From NCBI GenBank assembly GCA_023251775.1, contig JAHEYC010000035.1, positions 1-33,382 of the forward strand: a DNA stretch of 33,382 bases, written 5' to 3'. This DNA comes from Sphingobacteriaceae bacterium (GTDB taxonomy: Bacteria; Bacteroidota; Bacteroidia; B-17B0; Aurantibacillaceae). Of this stretch, positions 1 to 31,927 are shown in pieces; within the stretch, counting starts at the first letter, position 1, and the number at the start of each line of letters is the position of its first letter. A program made the position numbers and the translations under genes. The notes under the pieces are model-generated. The model was given only the letters and a program-made list of their open reading frames with translations, was not told the DNA's origin and made no database searches.

Positions 1-2935
1 TATAATTTACCGGAACGTTTGGTACAGGCGACGTTATAACAGTTGTCACTTGCATACTCGTAATACTTTTACTCGCGCAACCAATTGTAAAGTTAGTTGG
101 ACTCGTGACTGTAAATATTGGCACACCAACCGAAGCAGTTACCTGAACTGATTTTGTGGCTTTACATCCGGTAATATTGTAAACCGATTCTCCCCAATAC
201 ACACCAGGCTGACCCGGACAGAAAATATTTATAGTTCCTTGCGCAGCACCAACATAAACCGTATTTGATCCTGATACCTGAAACCAATTTGTTGTAACGT
301 TCGGGCCTAAATTACTTGTAAGTGTAAAACAGCCGCTTCCACCGGCACACGTAATATTATTTACAGTTGGTGTAATAACAATTGTTGGAGATTGCAAATT
401 CTGATACACTGTATATGTTTGCGCATATTGACAACCTGTAGAACTTGTTCCTACTACTTGTCCTGTACATGCCTGATTAAAACTCATAGTTGTTCCAACT
501 AACGAATTTGTACATACAGGGAACCACGTGAAAGTTAACGGAACACCATTTGTTATACTCGTCGTTAAAACTACATTTGGATTTAAGCATGTTACTGTAT
601 AATCTCCGCTTGGATTTACAACAACAAAACTAGCTTGCTGCGGTATTGGAGGAACCACAAACGAAACTGCAGTTGTACATCCGTTGGCAGTAGTTACCGT
701 AACATTATTTATACCCGGTACTAATCCGGCCGCAGTTCCACTATTTACAGTGGTTACAGTACTTGGCATTGGACTCCACGTTGTAGTATAATTTGGACTT
801 CCACTCGGATTAAATGTTATATTTAAATTTACGCTGCTGGTCACAGGATTTGCACAAGTTCCGTTAGTTAGAACCGTATTTGTAAATGGTGCAGGGAAAA
901 CCGTAACTGTTGCAATTGTAGTATTAGTAGTTAATACACTTGTTGAATTCAATCCGGTGATGTACAATGTATAATTTGTAGTTACTGTTGGAGCAACTGT
1001 AAATGTATTGCTTGACTGAATTGTTGCGCCAGGTTGAATAGAATAACTTGGACTAGTTAAGTTATTTGGATTACCAATACTTATAGCTGCTACCTGACCA
1101 AAACAAATGGCTGTGTTGGTTGCAGGAATATTATAATTACAATCAGGGGCTAATGCACATGTAATGCTATTTATTGCAGAGTATGTTCCACAAAAACCGC
1201 TTCCACTTACGTAAAGTACTTTATTTCCCTTATCCAATTTAATATCATACACATATTTATTTACTGTGGTAGCATTTGCGTTAATGCTTGGTAAAGCAAC
1301 AAAACTACTTCCTGTGTATTTATAAGACAAAATATTTCCATTACCTCCAATATAAACGTTATTGCAATCATCAACTGCAATACCACCCTGCTCTTTTAAG
1401 TTAAGTCCAGCCACTGTTGTAGCGGTGATCATATTTCCGGTTACTTTGTTGTATGCAGCAAGGTTAAATCCATCCCAATAAAACAAAAAGTTATTATTAG
1501 ACGCCAAGGCATTGAATCCATTAGAAGTTACAGCCCCGCCAACATAAAATGATTTATTTCCAGCTTCTGAGAACGTACTAAAATTTGTTGGTGCTATCCA
1601 AACAGAACTTGTGAACGCCGAATTGATCTTGGTGATCATATTGTTTAGATACGTAGTTTGAACCGAAGCAAACAAAAAATAGATCTCACCCGAATTATCG
1701 ATCGTATGCGAAGCAACGTCGTGTCCTTGTGTAGCAGTTGGTCCAAAAAATACAATAGGAACAATTGTTCCTGTAACCTGATCCATGATACCGGAACATT
1801 CATTTGAATAAATACTTCCTCCTAAACCATAGATCTTATCGGTAGCACAGTGGTAAGCCATATCCCATATCTCCGACCACGAAGCCACATTATTGCTCAT
1901 TAAATTATCGTAATTCCCAAATGGATCAAGGCGAATGATAGTTGCAGTTAAAGATTTTCCAACGTAAACCTTCCCACTGAAACGGTGAACAACAAAGTTG
2001 TACGCAGCAGCTATAGAAGATGACCAAGGCGGTGCAGCCATGGAACCGGGAAATGTCCATTGTAAAACTCCTAAACTATTGTACTTAGCAACGCTGTTCG
2101 TAGTTCCACCGTACACAAATAAATTTCCGAAATTATCAAAGTCAACATCATAACCATAACCGCTTCCGTTGAACGTGGTGATATTAACTACAAATGGATC
2201 TATCACTAGATCTTTAGATGTATCATAATCTCCTTGGATCGAAAATTCAATATTCTTCTTTTTTATCGTGAAATTAGTTTTGATGTCGCGTCCATCTTGA
2301 GTACTTACTGGTTTATATTCAATAATTGGCTCCATTGGAGTACCAATTCTTACATTACCGTTTTCATCTAATGAAATGCCGTTCACATCACCCGTATAAG
2401 CAATTTTTACTTGACTTGGATCTGCTCCGGGATGAAGAATAACATTGTATTTAATTCCGGCCTCTTTATCATCAGGAATGATATATTCGATATCAATTTT
2501 ATTATACACATTTAAATAAGTTATCTTTTTAAAACAATGCGCGTTGAGTTCCGGTCCGCCATAAGTAAAATAATGACTTTGTTTCTCACTTTCTATGATC
2601 TGTATATTAGAATTACAATTTACCCAGTTCATGTTCACGTAATAGATCTGATTTGGTTTTCTATACGACACCATTCTCTTTTCTTGCTCTTCGATCTCCT
2701 CTTGTGTTGGCTCAAAGCGTTTCACTAACACATAAGTTAATCCTTTTGGAGTGAAATAGATATTCTCATTTCCATTCTCTATTCCAAATTTTACTTTGTC
2801 TTGTGTTGGAAGATGTTTGTCGAACTGGCCTTTATTTTCAATAAAAACACGCGTTCCAAAAACGTCCTTGTCGCGAACTGCAAGAACATTCATACTTAAA
2901 AAAATAAGTAAACCAAATACCAGTAGTCGTTTCAT
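1..2935 (-). CDS. Giant secreted Ig-like repeat protein, DUF7948 N-terminus (3' end off window)
   Basis: The open frame runs from an ATG at 2935 to the left edge with no stop, giving 978 visible codons. The N-terminus is a signal peptide (MKRLLVFGLLIFLSMNVLA). A DUF7948-like domain follows: FIENKGQF near residue 30, then KYNVILHPGADPSQVKI. Next comes a region rich in GN-[VL]-[FY]-V-[YG] and D-N-GE-I-Y-F patterns that looks like a beta-propeller, but it lacks the YYGG repeats of its neighbours. From about residue 620 it enters the Cys-containing Ig-like repeats (TCLNPN, ITCAGGSGCF, IGCASKS) that its three upstream paralogues share almost word for word. The missing end very likely carries a PKD and a CHU_C type B T9SS sorting domain as in the paralogues; that is inference. 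It is the last visible gene of a four-gene tandem array, 117 bp after its neighbour. Likely a cell-surface or secreted adhesin-like protein; ligand unknown. Confidence 0.85.
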   Translation of the reverse strand, partial: MKRLLVFGLLIFLSMNVLAVRDKDVFGTRVFIENKGQFDKHLPTQDKVKFGIENGNENIYFTPKGLTYVLVKRFEPTQEEIEEQEKRMVSYRKPNQIYYVNMNWVNCNSNIQIIESEKQSHYFTYGGPELNAHCFKKITYLNVYNKIDIEYIIPDDKEAGIKYNVILHPGADPSQVKIAYTGDVNGISLDENGNVRIGTPMEPIIEYKPVSTQDGRDIKTNFTIKKKNIEFSIQGDYDTSKDLVIDPFVVNITTFNGSGYGYDVDFDNFGNLFVYGGTTNSVAKYNSLGVLQWTFPGSMAAPPWSSSIAAAYNFVVHRFSGKVYVGKSLTATIIRLDPFGNYDNLMSNNVASWSEIWDMAYHCATDKIYGLGGSIYSNECSGIMDQVTGTIVPIVFFGPTATQGHDVASHTIDNSGEIYFLFASVQTTYLNNMITKINSAFTSSVWIAPTNFSTFSEAGNKSFYVGGAVTSNGFNALASNNNFLFYWDGFNLAAYNKVTGNMITATTVAGLNLKEQGGIAVDDCNNVYIGGNGNILSYKYTGSSFVALPSINANATTVNKYVYDIKLDKGNKVLYVSGSGFCGTYSAINSITCALAPDCNYNIPATNTAICFGQVAAISIGNPNNLTSPSYSIQPGATIQSSNTFTVAPTVTTNYTLYITGLNSTSVLTTNTTIATVTVFPAPFTNTVLTNGTCANPVTSSVNLNITFNPSGSPNYTTTWSPMPSTVTTVNSGTAAGLVPGINNVTVTTANGCTTAVSFVVPPIPQQASFVVVNPSGDYTVTCLNPNVVLTTSITNGVPLTFTWFPVCTNSLVGTTMSFNQACTGQVVGTSSTGCQYAQTYTVYQNLQSPTIVITPTVNNITCAGGSGCFTLTSNLGPNVTTNWFQVSGSNTVYVGAAQGTINIFCPGQPGVYWGESVYNITGCKATKSVQVTASVGVPIFTVTSPTNFTIGCASKSITSMQVTTVITSPVPNVPVNY

Positions 2936-27611: not shown

Positions 27612-28301
27612 TTAAGCATTTTTTTTACCAGTTGATTTGTTCAGAATTTCCGTATAATAAAACTTTGATAGTTTTTTAGCTCTTGATGTAATGTTTGCGG
27701 TTTCCCAATTCTCAAATTCCTCAACAAAATCACGTATCCATTTGTAGGATGACTTTAAATATATTTTTTTCTTTTCCTTGTAGATTCCGTCTCCAGCTTC
27801 TCCGTTCAATGGGCCTTCCAACAAAATTAGATTTCCTATGTTTAAGGATTCTGCCCCCTTAGTCTCAGAAAGTATGTGTTCAATTGTTCCTGCCTCAGAA
27901 AACGTGTCTAGTTTTTCATAAAAAGAATTTATTTTCTGAATAACATATTTAGTTTTGACATTGTTTGGGTGATCTTTTTTTGAGAAAGTTAACTCGATGA
28001 AGCGTTTTGAAAAAGTCTGATAATCAGGAAAAAGTTTGTCTAAGGGTTTTATAAGCAAGTCGTCAATAGTTTTATGCGCTGCTGTTTTACTTGCGCATTT
28101 TTTTAAGGAAATTGCGAAACTTGAAAATATTTTTTCAAATCTACTTGCTCTACCAGTAGCAATTGAGTTATATGCAAAGTGAAAATTTTCCAAATACAAA
28201 ATAGCCTCTTTAAATTTGGTAGCAGATACTATGTCCTTTTCTTTCGCCTTAAACAACGCTAATAAAGCAATCCTAACCTGAACTATATTAAAATAATTCA
28301 T
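27612..28301 (-). CDS. GmrSD-type restriction protein, C-terminal (DUF1524/HNH-like) fragment
   Basis: This is the downstream half of a DUF262-DUF1524 protein, in a frame +1 relative to the upstream half. It reads 229 residues from the ATG at 28301. The frame is open back to about 28331. The DUF1524 signature is clear: TIEHILSE (the HNH histidine), NIGNLILLEGPLNGEAGDGIY, KKKIYLKSS, FENWETANITSRAKKLSKFYYTEI. In intact GmrSD proteins this domain is the nuclease that cuts modified (for example glucosylated hydroxymethyl) phage DNA, powered by the DUF262 half. The N-terminal part (NYFNIVQVRIALLALFKAKEKD) continues the helical linker expected after DUF262. It overlaps the upstream half by 14 bp. 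It may be translated by coupling, but a frameshift mutation or a sequencing error is more likely. Confidence 0.7.
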   Translation of the reverse strand: MNYFNIVQVRIALLALFKAKEKDIVSATKFKEAILYLENFHFAYNSIATGRASRFEKIFSSFAISLKKCASKTAAHKTIDDLLIKPLDKLFPDYQTFSKRFIELTFSKKDHPNNVKTKYVIQKINSFYEKLDTFSEAGTIEHILSETKGAESLNIGNLILLEGPLNGEAGDGIYKEKKKIYLKSSYKWIRDFVEEFENWETANITSRAKKLSKFYYTEILNKSTGKKNA

Positions 28302-29307
28302 TAGGACATATAGGCTTTGAGTCTTCTTCAATTTCTTTCAGGAAATCTTTATATCTTTTTTTTGTTTTAGGCTTTACATCCTTTTGAAAATCATCATAGA
28401 GTTTAGATCCAGGGGTTTTCTTGTAATTTGAAATCCAAAAGTGTCGATAAAAAGTCGCTAGACCAACTGATTCAGGTGGTCTTGAGTTAAGACTCTCTTT
28501 AATTTTTGTCCATTTAACATCTGCATAATCCGCTGCGCCTCCTTCATCAACAATTTCAAAAATTTTGTTTTTAATTAAGTCAACATACGATAGCCTTTTC
28601 CCTTTGGCATTAAGAATTTCAAAAATCATATTCGCGTTTTCCTTATCAGGAGTTGAAATTGAAATGAAGGCAGTCCCAAGAACCTGATCCCTTATAGCTT
28701 TCAAAATATCCAAATACGTCAATCGATCAACGTCGCCACTATTTAATTTTTTCTTAAGATGCGTTCTAATTTTTTTCTCCTCTAGATTTTCAAAAAGATA
28801 AATAAATGATTCTTTTATACTTTCCTCTTCTTCCGTTGCGGCTTGTTGAGCATCAGTTTTTTCTCTGTCTTGAATATAAAATGAGAAGTACGGATAATGA
28901 GTTTTACTTTGTAAAATTCTTACATCTTCACCGTCATCATTTTTGGTCATAATATATTTGAAAATTTGTTCACTGAGCGTCTCTTCGCCGATACTCCTAA
29001 ATCTATCTGAAAGAGCCGAAAAAAGAATAGTAATTGTAGTGATACGTTGTTGACCATCAACTACCAAAATAGGCTTACTAGTATCTTTTGATTCGGAATA
29101 TTCGCCGACAAACAGCATTGTCCCTAAAAAGTAACTACTTGTTTCTAATTTATTGTCCTTAATGGTTAGGCAAGCTAACATGTCATCCAGGAATTCTTGG
29201 TAGTTCTTTTTGTCCCACGAATATTCTCTTTGAAATCTTGGTATCGAAAATTGACAGCCCGATATTAGCAGAGATCTGATGCTTTCGTCTTTTGGTTTTA
29301 TATTCAT
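28288..29307 (-). CDS. GmrSD-type restriction protein, N-terminal (DUF262) part
   Basis: This 339-residue DUF262/GmrS-like domain has IPRFQREYSWDKKNYQEF (22-39), the DGQQR motif (84-88, in VVDGQQRITTITILFSAL) and FEILNAKGKRLSYVDLIKNKIF. DUF262 is a ParB/Srx-fold NTPase that drives the nuclease part in type IV restriction systems such as GmrSD and in related phage-defence proteins. The frame ends at 28288, just past the helical region, where a full-length protein would run on into DUF1524. That sequence is found in the +1 frame from about 28331. Deleting one C of the CC in AAGCCTATATG would give SKLYVLMNYFN and join the halves. No other defence subunit is adjacent. The 206-bp gap upstream (29308-29513) shows no gene. 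Confidence 0.82.
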   Translation of the reverse strand: MNIKPKDESIRSLLISGCQFSIPRFQREYSWDKKNYQEFLDDMLACLTIKDNKLETSSYFLGTMLFVGEYSESKDTSKPILVVDGQQRITTITILFSALSDRFRSIGEETLSEQIFKYIMTKNDDGEDVRILQSKTHYPYFSFYIQDREKTDAQQAATEEEESIKESFIYLFENLEEKKIRTHLKKKLNSGDVDRLTYLDILKAIRDQVLGTAFISISTPDKENANMIFEILNAKGKRLSYVDLIKNKIFEIVDEGGAADYADVKWTKIKESLNSRPPESVGLATFYRHFWISNYKKTPGSKLYDDFQKDVKPKTKKRYKDFLKEIEEDSKPICPNELF

Positions 29308-29513: not shown

Positions 29514-30863
29514 CTAATTCGAACGAGTGATTTTTATAGGAGTTCCCAAACAACAAATGATTGTATTAATTTTTTCCACTCTATCCTTTATCACTTGCCT
29601 CCATTGTTCGTAAACCCATTCGGTTTTACTCGGAAGACCATGATAAACCTCGTATGGAGTTTGACCTTTAAATAAATCAAGGGGTTTCGTGTAATTGTGT
29701 TCTTTTATCGCTATTTCTAGCAATTTTTTAAGATCTCCTAGGGATTTTACCCGATCTCTATATAGATACATGTATTTTAAAGAATGATTATACCTTTCGA
29801 TCATTGAATTCGAATAAGGCGTGTCCTTCCTCGCAAGTATTAACTTTACATTTTTCAGTCCTTTAATATAATTTCTCACAACCTTCGCTTTGTTTTCAGT
29901 GCCAGAATCGGTTACGAAAGATGTTTCCATACCATCATTATTAAGATCTGCCAATGCTGCTTTAAAGGTTGAAACTCTTGTTGTCGCACTAATTGTATCT
30001 GAAATAGCCCACGACTTAATATATCTAGAGTAATTGTCTTTTACAAGATAAATGAAATATGTCTTTCTATTCTCTATTTTAAAGTAAGTAATATCTGCGT
30101 GCAAATATTGATTTGCATACTCAGCTCTTAAGCCCTGTCTATAATATTTTGGACTCTTTTTATGTCGTTTTCTAACAATCCCGTTTTGCTTTTTAATCCT
30201 GTCCCAAACCCCTCTGCATGCAAAGACATTGTGTTCTAAGCGAGCCTGCCACATTAAAGAACTTATTGGGAAGTGTTCATATCTTTTCTCAAGCAGAAGT
30301 TCAATAATTCTATCCTCTTCCTCTATTGACACTTGGTTTGGATGCCTTTTAATACATAATAAATTTTTTGAAAAATTGCACGTTCCCTTATCAAGTTGTT
30401 TCCATTCGTAATAGGTATTCTTGTTAAGATTTAGAAGTTTTGAAAAATTCGTTACGTTAAATAGTTTTTTATTTTTCTCAACACACTTGATAACGTGTGA
30501 TTTATTTTTAAAAATTACCCTTTCAAATTCTCTACTGTTTGATCCAATTTTAATTGCTAAACTAATAACCTCATTTTCTGCCCTTGCGATACTCAATTTC
30601 TTTTCAAGTGAGATAATTTCCATATTTAATATCCGAGAATCATAATCCTTATTATTATTGTTGTCCCTATCATTATAATAGTTATATCCAACTAATTTAT
30701 TCCATTTTTCTCTTTTCCATCTACTAATATTAAGTGGATTAACAATACCTTTGAATTCTCTAGGGATATATCCCTTTATTGCATCCAATTTCAATCTTGG
30801 ATCGAATTTCCTTTTTACCAATTTAAAATAATTTAATATTAAATCATTAGAAACGAAAGCCAA
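29514..30863 (-). CDS. DDE integrase/transposase (rve domain)
   Basis: This 449-residue integrase-core protein has catalytic residues Asp257 (QYLHADITYF), Asp319 (SFVTDSGTENK) and Glu356 (DTPYSNSMIERYNHSL), the DDx(~35)E set. The N-terminal ~60 residues (AIKGYIPREFKGIV, SRWKREKW) look like a DNA-binding helix-turn-helix. A coiled stretch (81-105) and a second HTH-like part (VTNFSKLLNLNKNTYYEWK) come before the core. The family is IS3/IS481-like in its core, but I cannot name an IS. The start is odd. The only upstream start in frame is TTG at 30863, which lies inside a promoter-like TACTTTTG (30868-30861); the first ATG is residue 81. An in-frame TAA lies just upstream. No second orfA and no clear terminal inverted repeats were seen, so it may be a relic or part of a larger element ending in the motif array at 30953-31170. 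Confidence 0.85.
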   Translation of the reverse strand: MAFVSNDLILNYFKLVKRKFDPRLKLDAIKGYIPREFKGIVNPLNISRWKREKWNKLVGYNYYNDRDNNNNKDYDSRILNMEIISLEKKLSIARAENEVISLAIKIGSNSREFERVIFKNKSHVIKCVEKNKKLFNVTNFSKLLNLNKNTYYEWKQLDKGTCNFSKNLLCIKRHPNQVSIEEEDRIIELLLEKRYEHFPISSLMWQARLEHNVFACRGVWDRIKKQNGIVRKRHKKSPKYYRQGLRAEYANQYLHADITYFKIENRKTYFIYLVKDNYSRYIKSWAISDTISATTRVSTFKAALADLNNDGMETSFVTDSGTENKAKVVRNYIKGLKNVKLILARKDTPYSNSMIERYNHSLKYMYLYRDRVKSLGDLKKLLEIAIKEHNYTKPLDLFKGQTPYEVYHGLPSKTEWVYEQWRQVIKDRVEKINTIICCLGTPIKITRSN

Positions 30864-30952
30864 AAGTAATAGTTATAAAAAACTATTAAAATATAATAAT
30901 TATTTTTTCTTTAAATAGGAATTCGTAATTTAAGATGAAGAAGAAAAAAAAC

Positions 30953-31075
30953 ATGTTGAAAAAAATGGAAAATTTCAACATATGCGTAAAGCTTCTTAAT
31001 AGGAATAGTTCAATATGTTGAAATTTTCGAGTTTTTTCAACATATTAATTCATTATGTTGAAGTGGTTAACATAT
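30953..31075. repeat. Array of alternating ATGTTGAA / TTCAACAT motifs
   Basis: Copies are: + at 30953-30960, - at 30974-30981, + at 31015-31022, - at 31036-31043, + at 31055-31062, and a variant - (TTAACATAT) at 31067-31075, with an outlying identical variant at 31162-31170. Two +/- pairs have the same 21-bp offset. The middle pair is a 12-bp perfect inverted repeat, AATATGTTGAAA/TTTCAACATATT (31012-31023, 31035-31046). Spacings of 21, 41, 21 and 19 bp are close to whole helical turns. This suggests a protein-binding array, perhaps transposase end sites or an operator. It is upstream of the transposase gene. Confidence 0.75.
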
Positions 31076-31170
31076 ACCGCAAGCGCTAAAAATTCGATAA
31101 TGTGCATAACAAAGACGATGTGCAATTTTACTTCACTCATAATATATTGTTTTTCAATTACTTAACATAT

Positions 31171-31191
31171 GTGGTCGCAAATTGCGACCAC
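31171..31191. repeat. Perfect palindrome, 10-bp arms
   Basis: GTGGTCGCAA (31171-31180) and TTGCGACCAC (31182-31191) flank a single central A, followed on the plus strand by CTCA and six T (31196-31201). It could work as a plus-strand terminator, but no plus-strand gene ends nearby, so a dispersed palindrome or a protein site is more likely. Confidence 0.7.
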
Positions 31192-31297: not shown

Positions 31298-31927
31298 TTA
31301 TATAGAGAGATAAACCACCTTCTTCGTCTCAAAAAATTCTTCCGAAAAATAATTTTTAAGATCGTAAAGATCACATTTTTTATAAAAGTGTCCGAACTCT
31401 TGTTTAAGGTCGCCGCCTTTTAAATACAAAATACCATTGGAAAGCGTGTTTTTTTGTTCTTTCGCAAATTTTCCCTTCACCCAAGTATAAAACGTAGGAA
31501 ATTCCGTTACTGCCCTACTCACCACAAAATCAAATTTGCCTTCCACTTTTTCGGCGCGCTCGTGTTGGGAAGTTACGTTGGTTAATTTTAAAGCAGCAAC
31601 AACTTCGTTCACCACTTTTATTTTTTTTCCAATACTATCTACCAAATGAAAATGCACTTGCGGAAACATGATAGCTAATGGAATTCCCGGAAAACCTCCA
31701 CCCGTGCCTACATCCAAAATTTTTGTACCCGGTGCAAATTGAATCACTTTAGCAATTCCTAACGAGTGCAAAACATGTCGCTCGTAAAAATTATCCATGT
31801 CCTTGCGCGAAATAACATTTATCTGCTCGTTCCAAAAGTTATATAACTCTTTTAATTGCGCAAATTGTTCAACTTGCTGTTTGCTTAGATCGGGAAAATA
31901 TTTTTGTATGAGTTGCATGTTGTTCAT
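31298..31927 (-). CDS. rsmG: 16S rRNA (guanine(527)-N7)-methyltransferase RsmG
   Basis: This enzyme methylates N7 of G527 in 16S rRNA using S-adenosylmethionine. The 209-residue protein has the GidB/RsmG signatures: NEQINVISRKDMDNFYERHVLHSL (33-56), the SAM-binding loop DVGTGGGFPGIPLAI (72-86), VDSIGKKIKVV (95-105) and the conserved VSRAV. The length is normal. The start is the ATG at 31927 (MNNMQL); the ATG three codons on is also possible. The sigma-factor gene lies upstream on the same strand, with 234 bp of repeats between, so it may have its own promoter, which I could not identify. Confidence 0.96.
   Translation of the reverse strand: MNNMQLIQKYFPDLSKQQVEQFAQLKELYNFWNEQINVISRKDMDNFYERHVLHSLGIAKVIQFAPGTKILDVGTGGGFPGIPLAIMFPQVHFHLVDSIGKKIKVVNEVVAALKLTNVTSQHERAEKVEGKFDFVVSRAVTEFPTFYTWVKGKFAKEQKNTLSNGILYLKGGDLKQEFGHFYKKCDLYDLKNYFSEEFFETKKVVYLSI

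What the first reader, a model, noticed from the sequence alone, without database searches (positions are those of the whole stretch)
30953..31170. Helically phased array of seven alternating ATGTTGAA-type sites next to the transposase
Copies lie at 30953(+), 30974(-), 31015(+), 31036(-), 31055(+), 31067(-) and 31162(-). Two +/- pairs have identical 21-bp offsets, and the next offsets are 41 and 19 bp, all near multiples of a helical turn, so bound proteins would sit on one DNA face. Multi-site ends of this kind are known for large DDE elements such as Tn7 and Mu. A regulator or partition-type site is the alternative. No annotated feature explains it.
Basis: partly seen in the sequence, partly recalled or inferred. 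Interest (0 to 1): 0.65.

Follow-up and report, generated by a model that had tools for sequence, protein, structure and literature searches.

The report
Stranded binding-site array of SoFic toxins
The repeated motif beside the transposase looks like the promoter control region of a phage-defence enzyme gene (SoFic, a self-repressing Fic toxin) that this genome no longer seems to carry, rather than the end of a transposon.

Summary
The array is real and far from chance: five exact ATGTTGAA copies and two degenerate ones, at the stated places. Read on the minus strand it has a precise layout: 9-base arms at 0(+), 16(-), 30(+), 56(-). Nothing else in the window comes close (score 48; next 33). 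The same layout lies upstream of SoFic-type fic genes (anti-phage AMPylators with a C-terminal winged helix) in Bacteroidota: 38 of 63 upstream regions reach the test's floor p, 25 do not. The half-site varies with the recognition helix (AKRQTAA/TGTCGA, AHRQTAS/TGTTGA, SRITASKYL/CATGTA; partial Mantel r 0.77, 0 of 2000 permutations, 23 genes), so SoFic itself is the likely binder. Nearly the same 29-bp module precedes fic in three MAG loci, one fic truncated. Relatives of the transposase lack it. This genome shows no SoFic, and two congeners also hold arrays without fic. Best reading: an orphan SoFic operator, probably left after the fic gene was lost. New here: the layout and the helix/half-site match. 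Binding is inferred, not shown.

The parts
31053..31075 (-). 23-bp inverted repeat: half-sites at offsets 0(+) ATATGTTAA (31067-31075) and 14-22(-) TTATGTTGA (31053-31061)
   Evidence: matches the first two arms of the SoFic operator layout
31013..31045 (-). 33-bp inverted repeat M1 (ATATGTTGA ... TCAACATAT), the main operator module; same layout position as the promoter-proximal pair upstream of fic genes
   Evidence: layout score 48 with the 23-bp repeat, next best in window 33
30951..30983 (+). 33-bp inverted repeat M2, a second module in the opposite orientation, 62 bp from M1
   Evidence: core 27 of 29 identical to the module upstream of fic in L085/L087
31162..31170 (-). isolated degenerate half-site ATATGTTAA; not in register with the rest (offset -95), may be chance
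29514..30863 (-). DDE (rve) transposase ORF, 449 aa, IS3/IS481-like by NCBIfam below cut-off; single copy in the genome; by comparison with its relatives the start may be the TTG at 30821
30861..30868 (-). TACTTTTG, a match to the Bacteroidota -7 consensus TAnnTTTG (consensus recalled), a possible promoter of the transposase that does not overlap the array
31298..31927 (-). rsmG (GidB) housekeeping gene; the array begins about 220 bp beyond its stop
28288..29307 (-). GmrSD N-terminal part (type IV restriction-like), downstream of the transposase
27612..28331 (-). GmrSD C-terminal part, a separate overlapping ORF

Best explanation
The array is an operator of the SoFic type: a row of half-sites of the TGTTGA class to which the C-terminal winged-helix domain of a SoFic-class Fic protein would bind as a dimer (or several dimers), two half-sites per inverted repeat, covering the promoter of its own gene and repressing it. 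SoFic proteins are toxic anti-phage AMPylators, so tight self-repression is expected. In this genome the fic gene is not found; the operator now stands alone between rsmG and a transposase/GmrSD island, most likely because the fic gene was lost or replaced. Shown here: the layout, its association with fic genes, the match of half-site and recognition helix, absence of SoFic from the assembly. Inferred: binding, repression, and loss of a resident fic gene.
For: Layout score of the array 48, next best in the window 33; 0 of 2000 shuffles of the gap reach it, maximum 39. 38 of 63 fic upstream regions reach the floor p of 0.016 in the same test, with scores up to 50. In 187 loci, 700 kb, every place scoring 40 or more is in a fic locus, in the window, or in G011. 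Half-sites are 11-19 per kb in the 200 bp upstream of fic against 0-1.3 per kb inside the genes and further out, in 45 classified fic loci. Recognition helix and half-site vary together: partial Mantel r 0.77 given the rest of the protein, 0 of 2000 permutations, 23 genes (alignment); the AKRQ/TGTCGA pairing recurs in a Mesorhizobium plasmid fic. A genome-collection scan for the module gave five contigs: three are fic loci (L083 truncated fic, L085 and L087 intact and near-identical), one is the congener G039, one is a chance-like site in a Firmicutes ORF. L085 Fic is SoFic by PADLOC (366 bits), has Fic_N, Fic and SoFic-like_C and matches solved SoFic structures. Precedent: the Fic-HTH protein CccR represses its own promoter through an inverted repeat (PMC9755527, abstract and passages).
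Against: No SoFic in this genome, so the presumed binder is absent from it, or missing from a draft of 98.5% completeness. No fic coding remnant beside the array: best tblastn E 0.03, in the GmrSD C part. 25 of 63 fic upstream regions do not reach the floor p, and some (L095, L101, L174, L177, L185) show nothing of the layout. In this genus the TGTTGA-class arrays found (G000, G011, G039) are all without fic, 3 of 3, which sits oddly with simple decay. The array is too well preserved for an old relic. The second module M2 is inverted, which is not part of the usual fic layout. The genes compared are related by descent, which Mantel permutation does not remove.
Confidence: 0.75

Rival explanations
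1. The array is a multi-site end of a transposon mobilised by the neighbouring DDE transposase (Tn7- or Mu-like).
For: Position about 90 bp upstream of the transposase ORF; several sites in register. The two closest transposase relatives (L004, L005, about 52% identical) also have palindromes upstream.
Against: Those palindromes are TAGGTAA-type, of another layout, and lie in front of opposite-strand genes; 22 relatives lack the array; no array at the other end of the island; a transposase of IS3/IS481 type, not TnsB/MuA; the layout belongs to fic upstream regions.
Confidence: 0.04
2. The array is a working operator for the transposase or the transposase-GmrSD row, bound by a winged-helix protein of the SoFic specificity encoded elsewhere or missing from the assembly.
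For: Orientation of the layout (minus strand) points to the transposase and GmrSD; the array is well preserved (score 48); the assembly is a draft.
Against: A promoter-like TACTTTTG lies about 80 bp beyond the array, outside it; 11 loci of GmrSD relatives have no array above background (best 39, an AT-only match); transposase relatives have none; no SoFic-like C domain over cut-off in the genome.
Confidence: 0.12
3. The array serves another regulator family (for example a stand-alone winged-helix or HTH repressor, or a partition-type protein) that happens to use a similar layout.
For: Three arrays of the TGTTGA class in this genus are without fic; in L085 and L087 a HipB-like HTH gene is divergent to fic across the array.
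Against: L083 has the module and a fic start without hipBA; layout and helix pairing are specific to SoFic proteins in all loci scanned.
Confidence: 0.08
4. Chance cluster in AT-rich sequence, or RNA hairpins (terminators) only.
For: AT-rich gap; the repeats can fold; whole-window frequency of the 8-mer is ordinary.
Against: 0 of 2000 shuffles reach the layout score; no Rfam match; the same layout recurs with different half-sites matched to the protein helix, which RNA hairpins would not explain.
Confidence: 0.01

Closest known systems
CccR autorepressor operator (Fic-HTH protein of Yersinia pseudotuberculosis; PMC9755527, abstract and passages read)
   Same: A Fic enzyme with C-terminal HTH represses its own gene by binding inverted half-sites near the -35/-10 region; dimer with DNA-binding helices far apart.
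   Different: One pair of 10-bp half-sites separated by 26 bp, against several half-sites in a 0/16/30/56 layout here; here the fic gene is absent.
SoFic anti-phage defence protein (PADLOC SoFic; PMC12249575, abstract, outline and passages read)
   Same: The proteins whose upstream regions carry the layout are SoFic by profile.
   Different: In the passages found with the terms searched nothing on promoter binding by SoFic; the window lacks the gene.
AbiEi antitoxin operators with multiple inverted repeats (PMC7319586, seen in search listings only)
   Same: Winged-helix protein of a defence/toxin system repressing its own promoter through several inverted repeats.
   Different: Different protein family; toxin and binder are separate proteins there.
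RptR defence-island repressor (PMC12255303, abstract and outline read)
   Same: Repeated palindromic sites controlling a phage-defence island.
   Different: Stand-alone small repressor; TAGCTA sites; not Fic.
Tn7 or Mu transposon ends (recalled)
   Same: Several regularly spaced protein-binding sites.
   Different: No such sites with the transposase's relatives; no partner end.

Membership tests
SoFic-type fic operator | Four arms at offsets 0(+), 16(-), 30/31(+), 56/57(-) with one shared half-site | tested here: met
   Score 48 of a maximum of 54; fic upstreams up to 50
SoFic-type fic operator | Half-site of a class used by known SoFic genes | tested here: met
   TGTTGA upstream of L083, L085, L087; closest class TGTCGA
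SoFic-type fic operator | A SoFic gene directly downstream | tested here: not met
   No SoFic in the genome, no coding remnant; therefore called an orphan, not an intact operator
SoFic-type fic operator | Binding by a SoFic winged helix | not testable with these tools
   Needs gel shift or footprint
SoFic-type fic operator | Half-site varies with the recognition helix of the protein | tested here: met
   For the fic genes, not for the window, which has no protein: partial Mantel r 0.77, 23 genes
Multi-site DDE transposon end (Tn7/Mu type) | Sites present with homologous transposases | tested here: not met
   0 of 22 upstream regions; no layout score of 40 or more in 27 loci
Multi-site DDE transposon end (Tn7/Mu type) | Matching sites at the other end of the element | tested here: not met
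   None in the window
Multi-site DDE transposon end (Tn7/Mu type) | TnsB/MuA-type transposase | tested here: not met
   Best profiles IS3 and IS481, both below cut-off; Pfam rve

The most novel reading that the evidence does not exclude
SoFic genes of the TGTCGA/TGTTGA class behave as a movable cassette whose own operator array marks both of its edges: in some loci an array lies on each side of fic (clearest in L088 and L173, where the two are direct repeats), and the arrays without fic in G000, G011 and G039 are the solo scars left when the gene is lost by recombination between them, ready to receive another fic.
Probability: 0.15. Interest if true: 0.75.

Novelty: new variant of a known kind. 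Interest (0 to 1): 0.6.

Why it matters
SoFic proteins are toxic phage-defence enzymes whose control is little known. The array led to a testable rule: each SoFic protein appears to read a half-site set by its own recognition helix, in a fixed multi-site layout over its promoter. That makes operators predictable from the protein sequence, lets stranded operators be used to trace where defence genes have come and gone, and gives a direct bench test of autoregulation for dozens of genes. For the window itself, it removes a proposed new kind of transposon end.

Tried and rejected
Transposon end: tested against 22 transposase relatives (L007, L017, L019, L026, L027 left out there as partial matches) and all fetched loci; rejected. 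GmrSD operator: 11 loci of GmrSD relatives, no array above background; weakly rejected. Fic pseudogene beside the array: 30 fic proteins against window, G039 and L083; only L083 gave a true hit. tRNA and Rfam searches of the window: nothing. Viral contigs for the module: none. Plasmid blastn for the transposase region: none. Protein-based scan of genome contigs for the transposase: none confirmed. Exact ATGTTGAA-N13-TTCAACAT in a phylum sample: 3 of 395 genomes, namely this one, G568 and G542; the last two were not followed up. Loose gap pattern: 47 of 297 genomes, mostly with other gap lengths; only the near-identical G039 hit was followed in depth; G013, G117 and G035 stretches were fetched but not analysed beyond the scan. 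The half-site classes were assigned by eye for 45 of 63 fic loci; 18 were left unclassified; the Mantel test used automatic arms instead. In one search the shuffles were first-order Markov resamplings, 60 per region; true dinucleotide shuffles.

Full report
Observation. Five are exact ATGTTGAA and two are degenerate. The gap between the rsmG stop (31298) and the transposase ORF (start 30863) holds 5 exact copies; 5000 dinucleotide shuffles gave a mean of 0.06 and at most 2. Over the whole window the 8-mer with up to one mismatch is not enriched, so it is the clustering that is unusual. The sites form a 23-bp inverted repeat (31053-31075) and two 33-bp inverted repeats (31013-31045, 30951-30983) that are mutually inverted. 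The exact pair is unique in the genome.

Surroundings. The transposase is a 449-aa DDE protein with Pfam rve, closest to IS3 and IS481 models but below their cut-offs, single copy in the genome. Downstream lie two ORFs with the N- and C-terminal parts of a GmrSD-type restriction protein. In 30 rsmG loci read of 40 found in the genus, the transposase follows rsmG only in this genome (29 of 29 others without it within the 1.5 kb held or less), so the island is particular to it.

Transposon-end test. Of 27 loci of transposase relatives, 22 were read for inverted repeats in up to 700 bp upstream; none has an ATGTTGAA-type array. L004 and L005 have TAGGTAA palindromes of another layout, in front of opposite-strand genes; L006 and L028 share a TGGCGCATG hairpin; a few others have unrelated hairpins. 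There is no matching array at the other end of the island.

The lead. A scan of one genome per species for the 29-bp module found five contigs. Three are fic loci: L085 and L087 (near-identical, intact fic 70-75 bp downstream of the module) and L083 (fic cut to 92 aa). One is the congener G039, where the module lies in a gap between two divergent genes, and one is inside a long Firmicutes ORF, likely chance. The L085 protein has Fic_N, Fic and SoFic-like_C domains, is SoFic in PADLOC (366 bits) and matches solved SoFic chains, E about 1e-83.

General layout. I took 63 fic upstream regions (30 loci from 150 relatives; 30 from a phylum sample of 395; and L083, L085, L087). Many carry inverted half-sites of gene-specific sequence at 0(+), 16(-), 30 or 31(+), 56 or 57(-). 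A score of mutual identity among the four arms gave the floor p (60 resamplings) in 38 of 63; 25 did not reach it and several show nothing (L095, L101, L174, L177, L185). The window's array scores 48 on the minus strand; the next best of the whole window, both strands, is 33, and 2000 shuffles of the gap gave at most 39. Over 187 loci and 700 kb, every place at 40 or more lies in a fic locus, in the window, or in G011; from 39 downward AT-rich background begins, and G039 (39) rests on its sequence rather than on this score.

Who binds. The half-site follows the recognition helix of the SoFic C-terminal domain: AKRQTAA with TGTCGA, AHRQTAS with TGTTGA (and, in L158, TGTCGA), SRITASKYL with CATGTA, KTVGNYL with GAGGGCAA or GAGAGTAA, SRTTLTKYM with TGTCCA. 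With automatically taken arms of 23 genes the correlation of operator and helix distance is 0.88, against 0.71 with the rest of the protein; the partial value given the rest is 0.77 (0 of 2000 permutations), while that of the rest given the helix is 0.29. Descent is shared, so this is strong but not independent evidence. In six plasmid fic genes chosen from 45 listed hits, a Mesorhizobium gene with AKRQAAS has TGTCGA half-sites, but with another spacing (layout score 26), and an Aureibacter gene with TRPTASGYL has TCATGTAAA sites; the others have further half-sites. Half-sites are concentrated upstream: 11-19 per kb in 200 bp against 0-1.3 elsewhere, downstream 200 bp excepted, in 45 classified loci.

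Orphans. This genome has five Fic-domain proteins but none with the SoFic C domain over cut-off, and no SoFic hit. G039 and G011 have no SoFic hit either (for G039; for G011). G011's array (23-7-33 layout, TGTTGA half-sites) ends about 40 bp from the 3' end of a convergent gene, in an island with a serine recombinase and other defence-like genes. No fic remnant was found beside the window's or G039's array. In L108 and L115 a CATGTA-class array stands just upstream of a TGTCCA-class fic, which looks like replacement of one fic by another with the old operator left in place.

Flanking arrays. In 7 of 63 fic loci a layout score of 38 or more also lies just after the fic stop (L088, L159, L166, L167, L173, L186 same orientation, L174 opposite). 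L159, L174 and L186 have it only there. In L088 and L173 the upstream and downstream arrays are direct repeats; in L088 even the spacers agree. By half-site counts 6 of 17 TGTCGA-class loci and 0 of 28 in the other classes have downstream sites.

Mechanism. Most likely: a SoFic dimer binds each inverted repeat and represses its own promoter, as shown by others for the Fic-HTH protein CccR (footprint of two 10-bp inverted half-sites 26 bp apart; PMC9755527, abstract and passages). A Coxiella Fic with HTH was reported to bind DNA without known specificity (PMC10628234, passages). In this genome the array has no resident binder, and a promoter-like TACTTTTG for the transposase lies outside it, so present function is doubtful. 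I found no paper on the multi-site layout or the helix/half-site rule in six searches of the held open-access library; subscription journals and preprints are not held there.

Noticed in passing
window 27612-29307: GmrSD is split into two overlapping ORFs (339 and 239 aa) that match consecutive parts of one defence profile (HEC-06), whereas relatives have frames of mostly 556-634 aa (one 389); the gene looks broken.
   Followed up: partly
window 31171-31191: Perfect 21-bp palindrome GTGGTCGCAATTTGCGACCAC between rsmG and the array; origin unknown.
   Followed up: no
L088, L173 (also L159, L166, L167, L174, L178, L186): Arrays or half-sites just after the fic stop codon; in L088 and L173 direct repeats of the upstream array.
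   Followed up: partly
L108, L115 upstream of fic: A CATGTA-class array stacked directly upstream of a TGTCCA-class fic, as if one fic had replaced another.
   Followed up: no
L004 around 950-1060, L005 around 1288-1332: TAGGTAA palindromes near the two closest transposase relatives, in front of opposite-strand genes; perhaps another operator family.
   Followed up: no
G163: 13 places matching the gapped pattern; those listed are mostly near-identical 21-bp palindromes such as ATGTTGAAACAAGTTCAACAT, a dispersed repeat of another kind.
   Followed up: no
L006, L028 (G144): Two copies of a transposase relative share a TGGCGCATG...TGCGCCA hairpin 60-115 bp upstream, perhaps the real end of that insertion sequence.
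   Followed up: no
L085, L087: fic lies divergent to a HipB-like HTH gene and a HipA-like gene across the array.
   Followed up: partly
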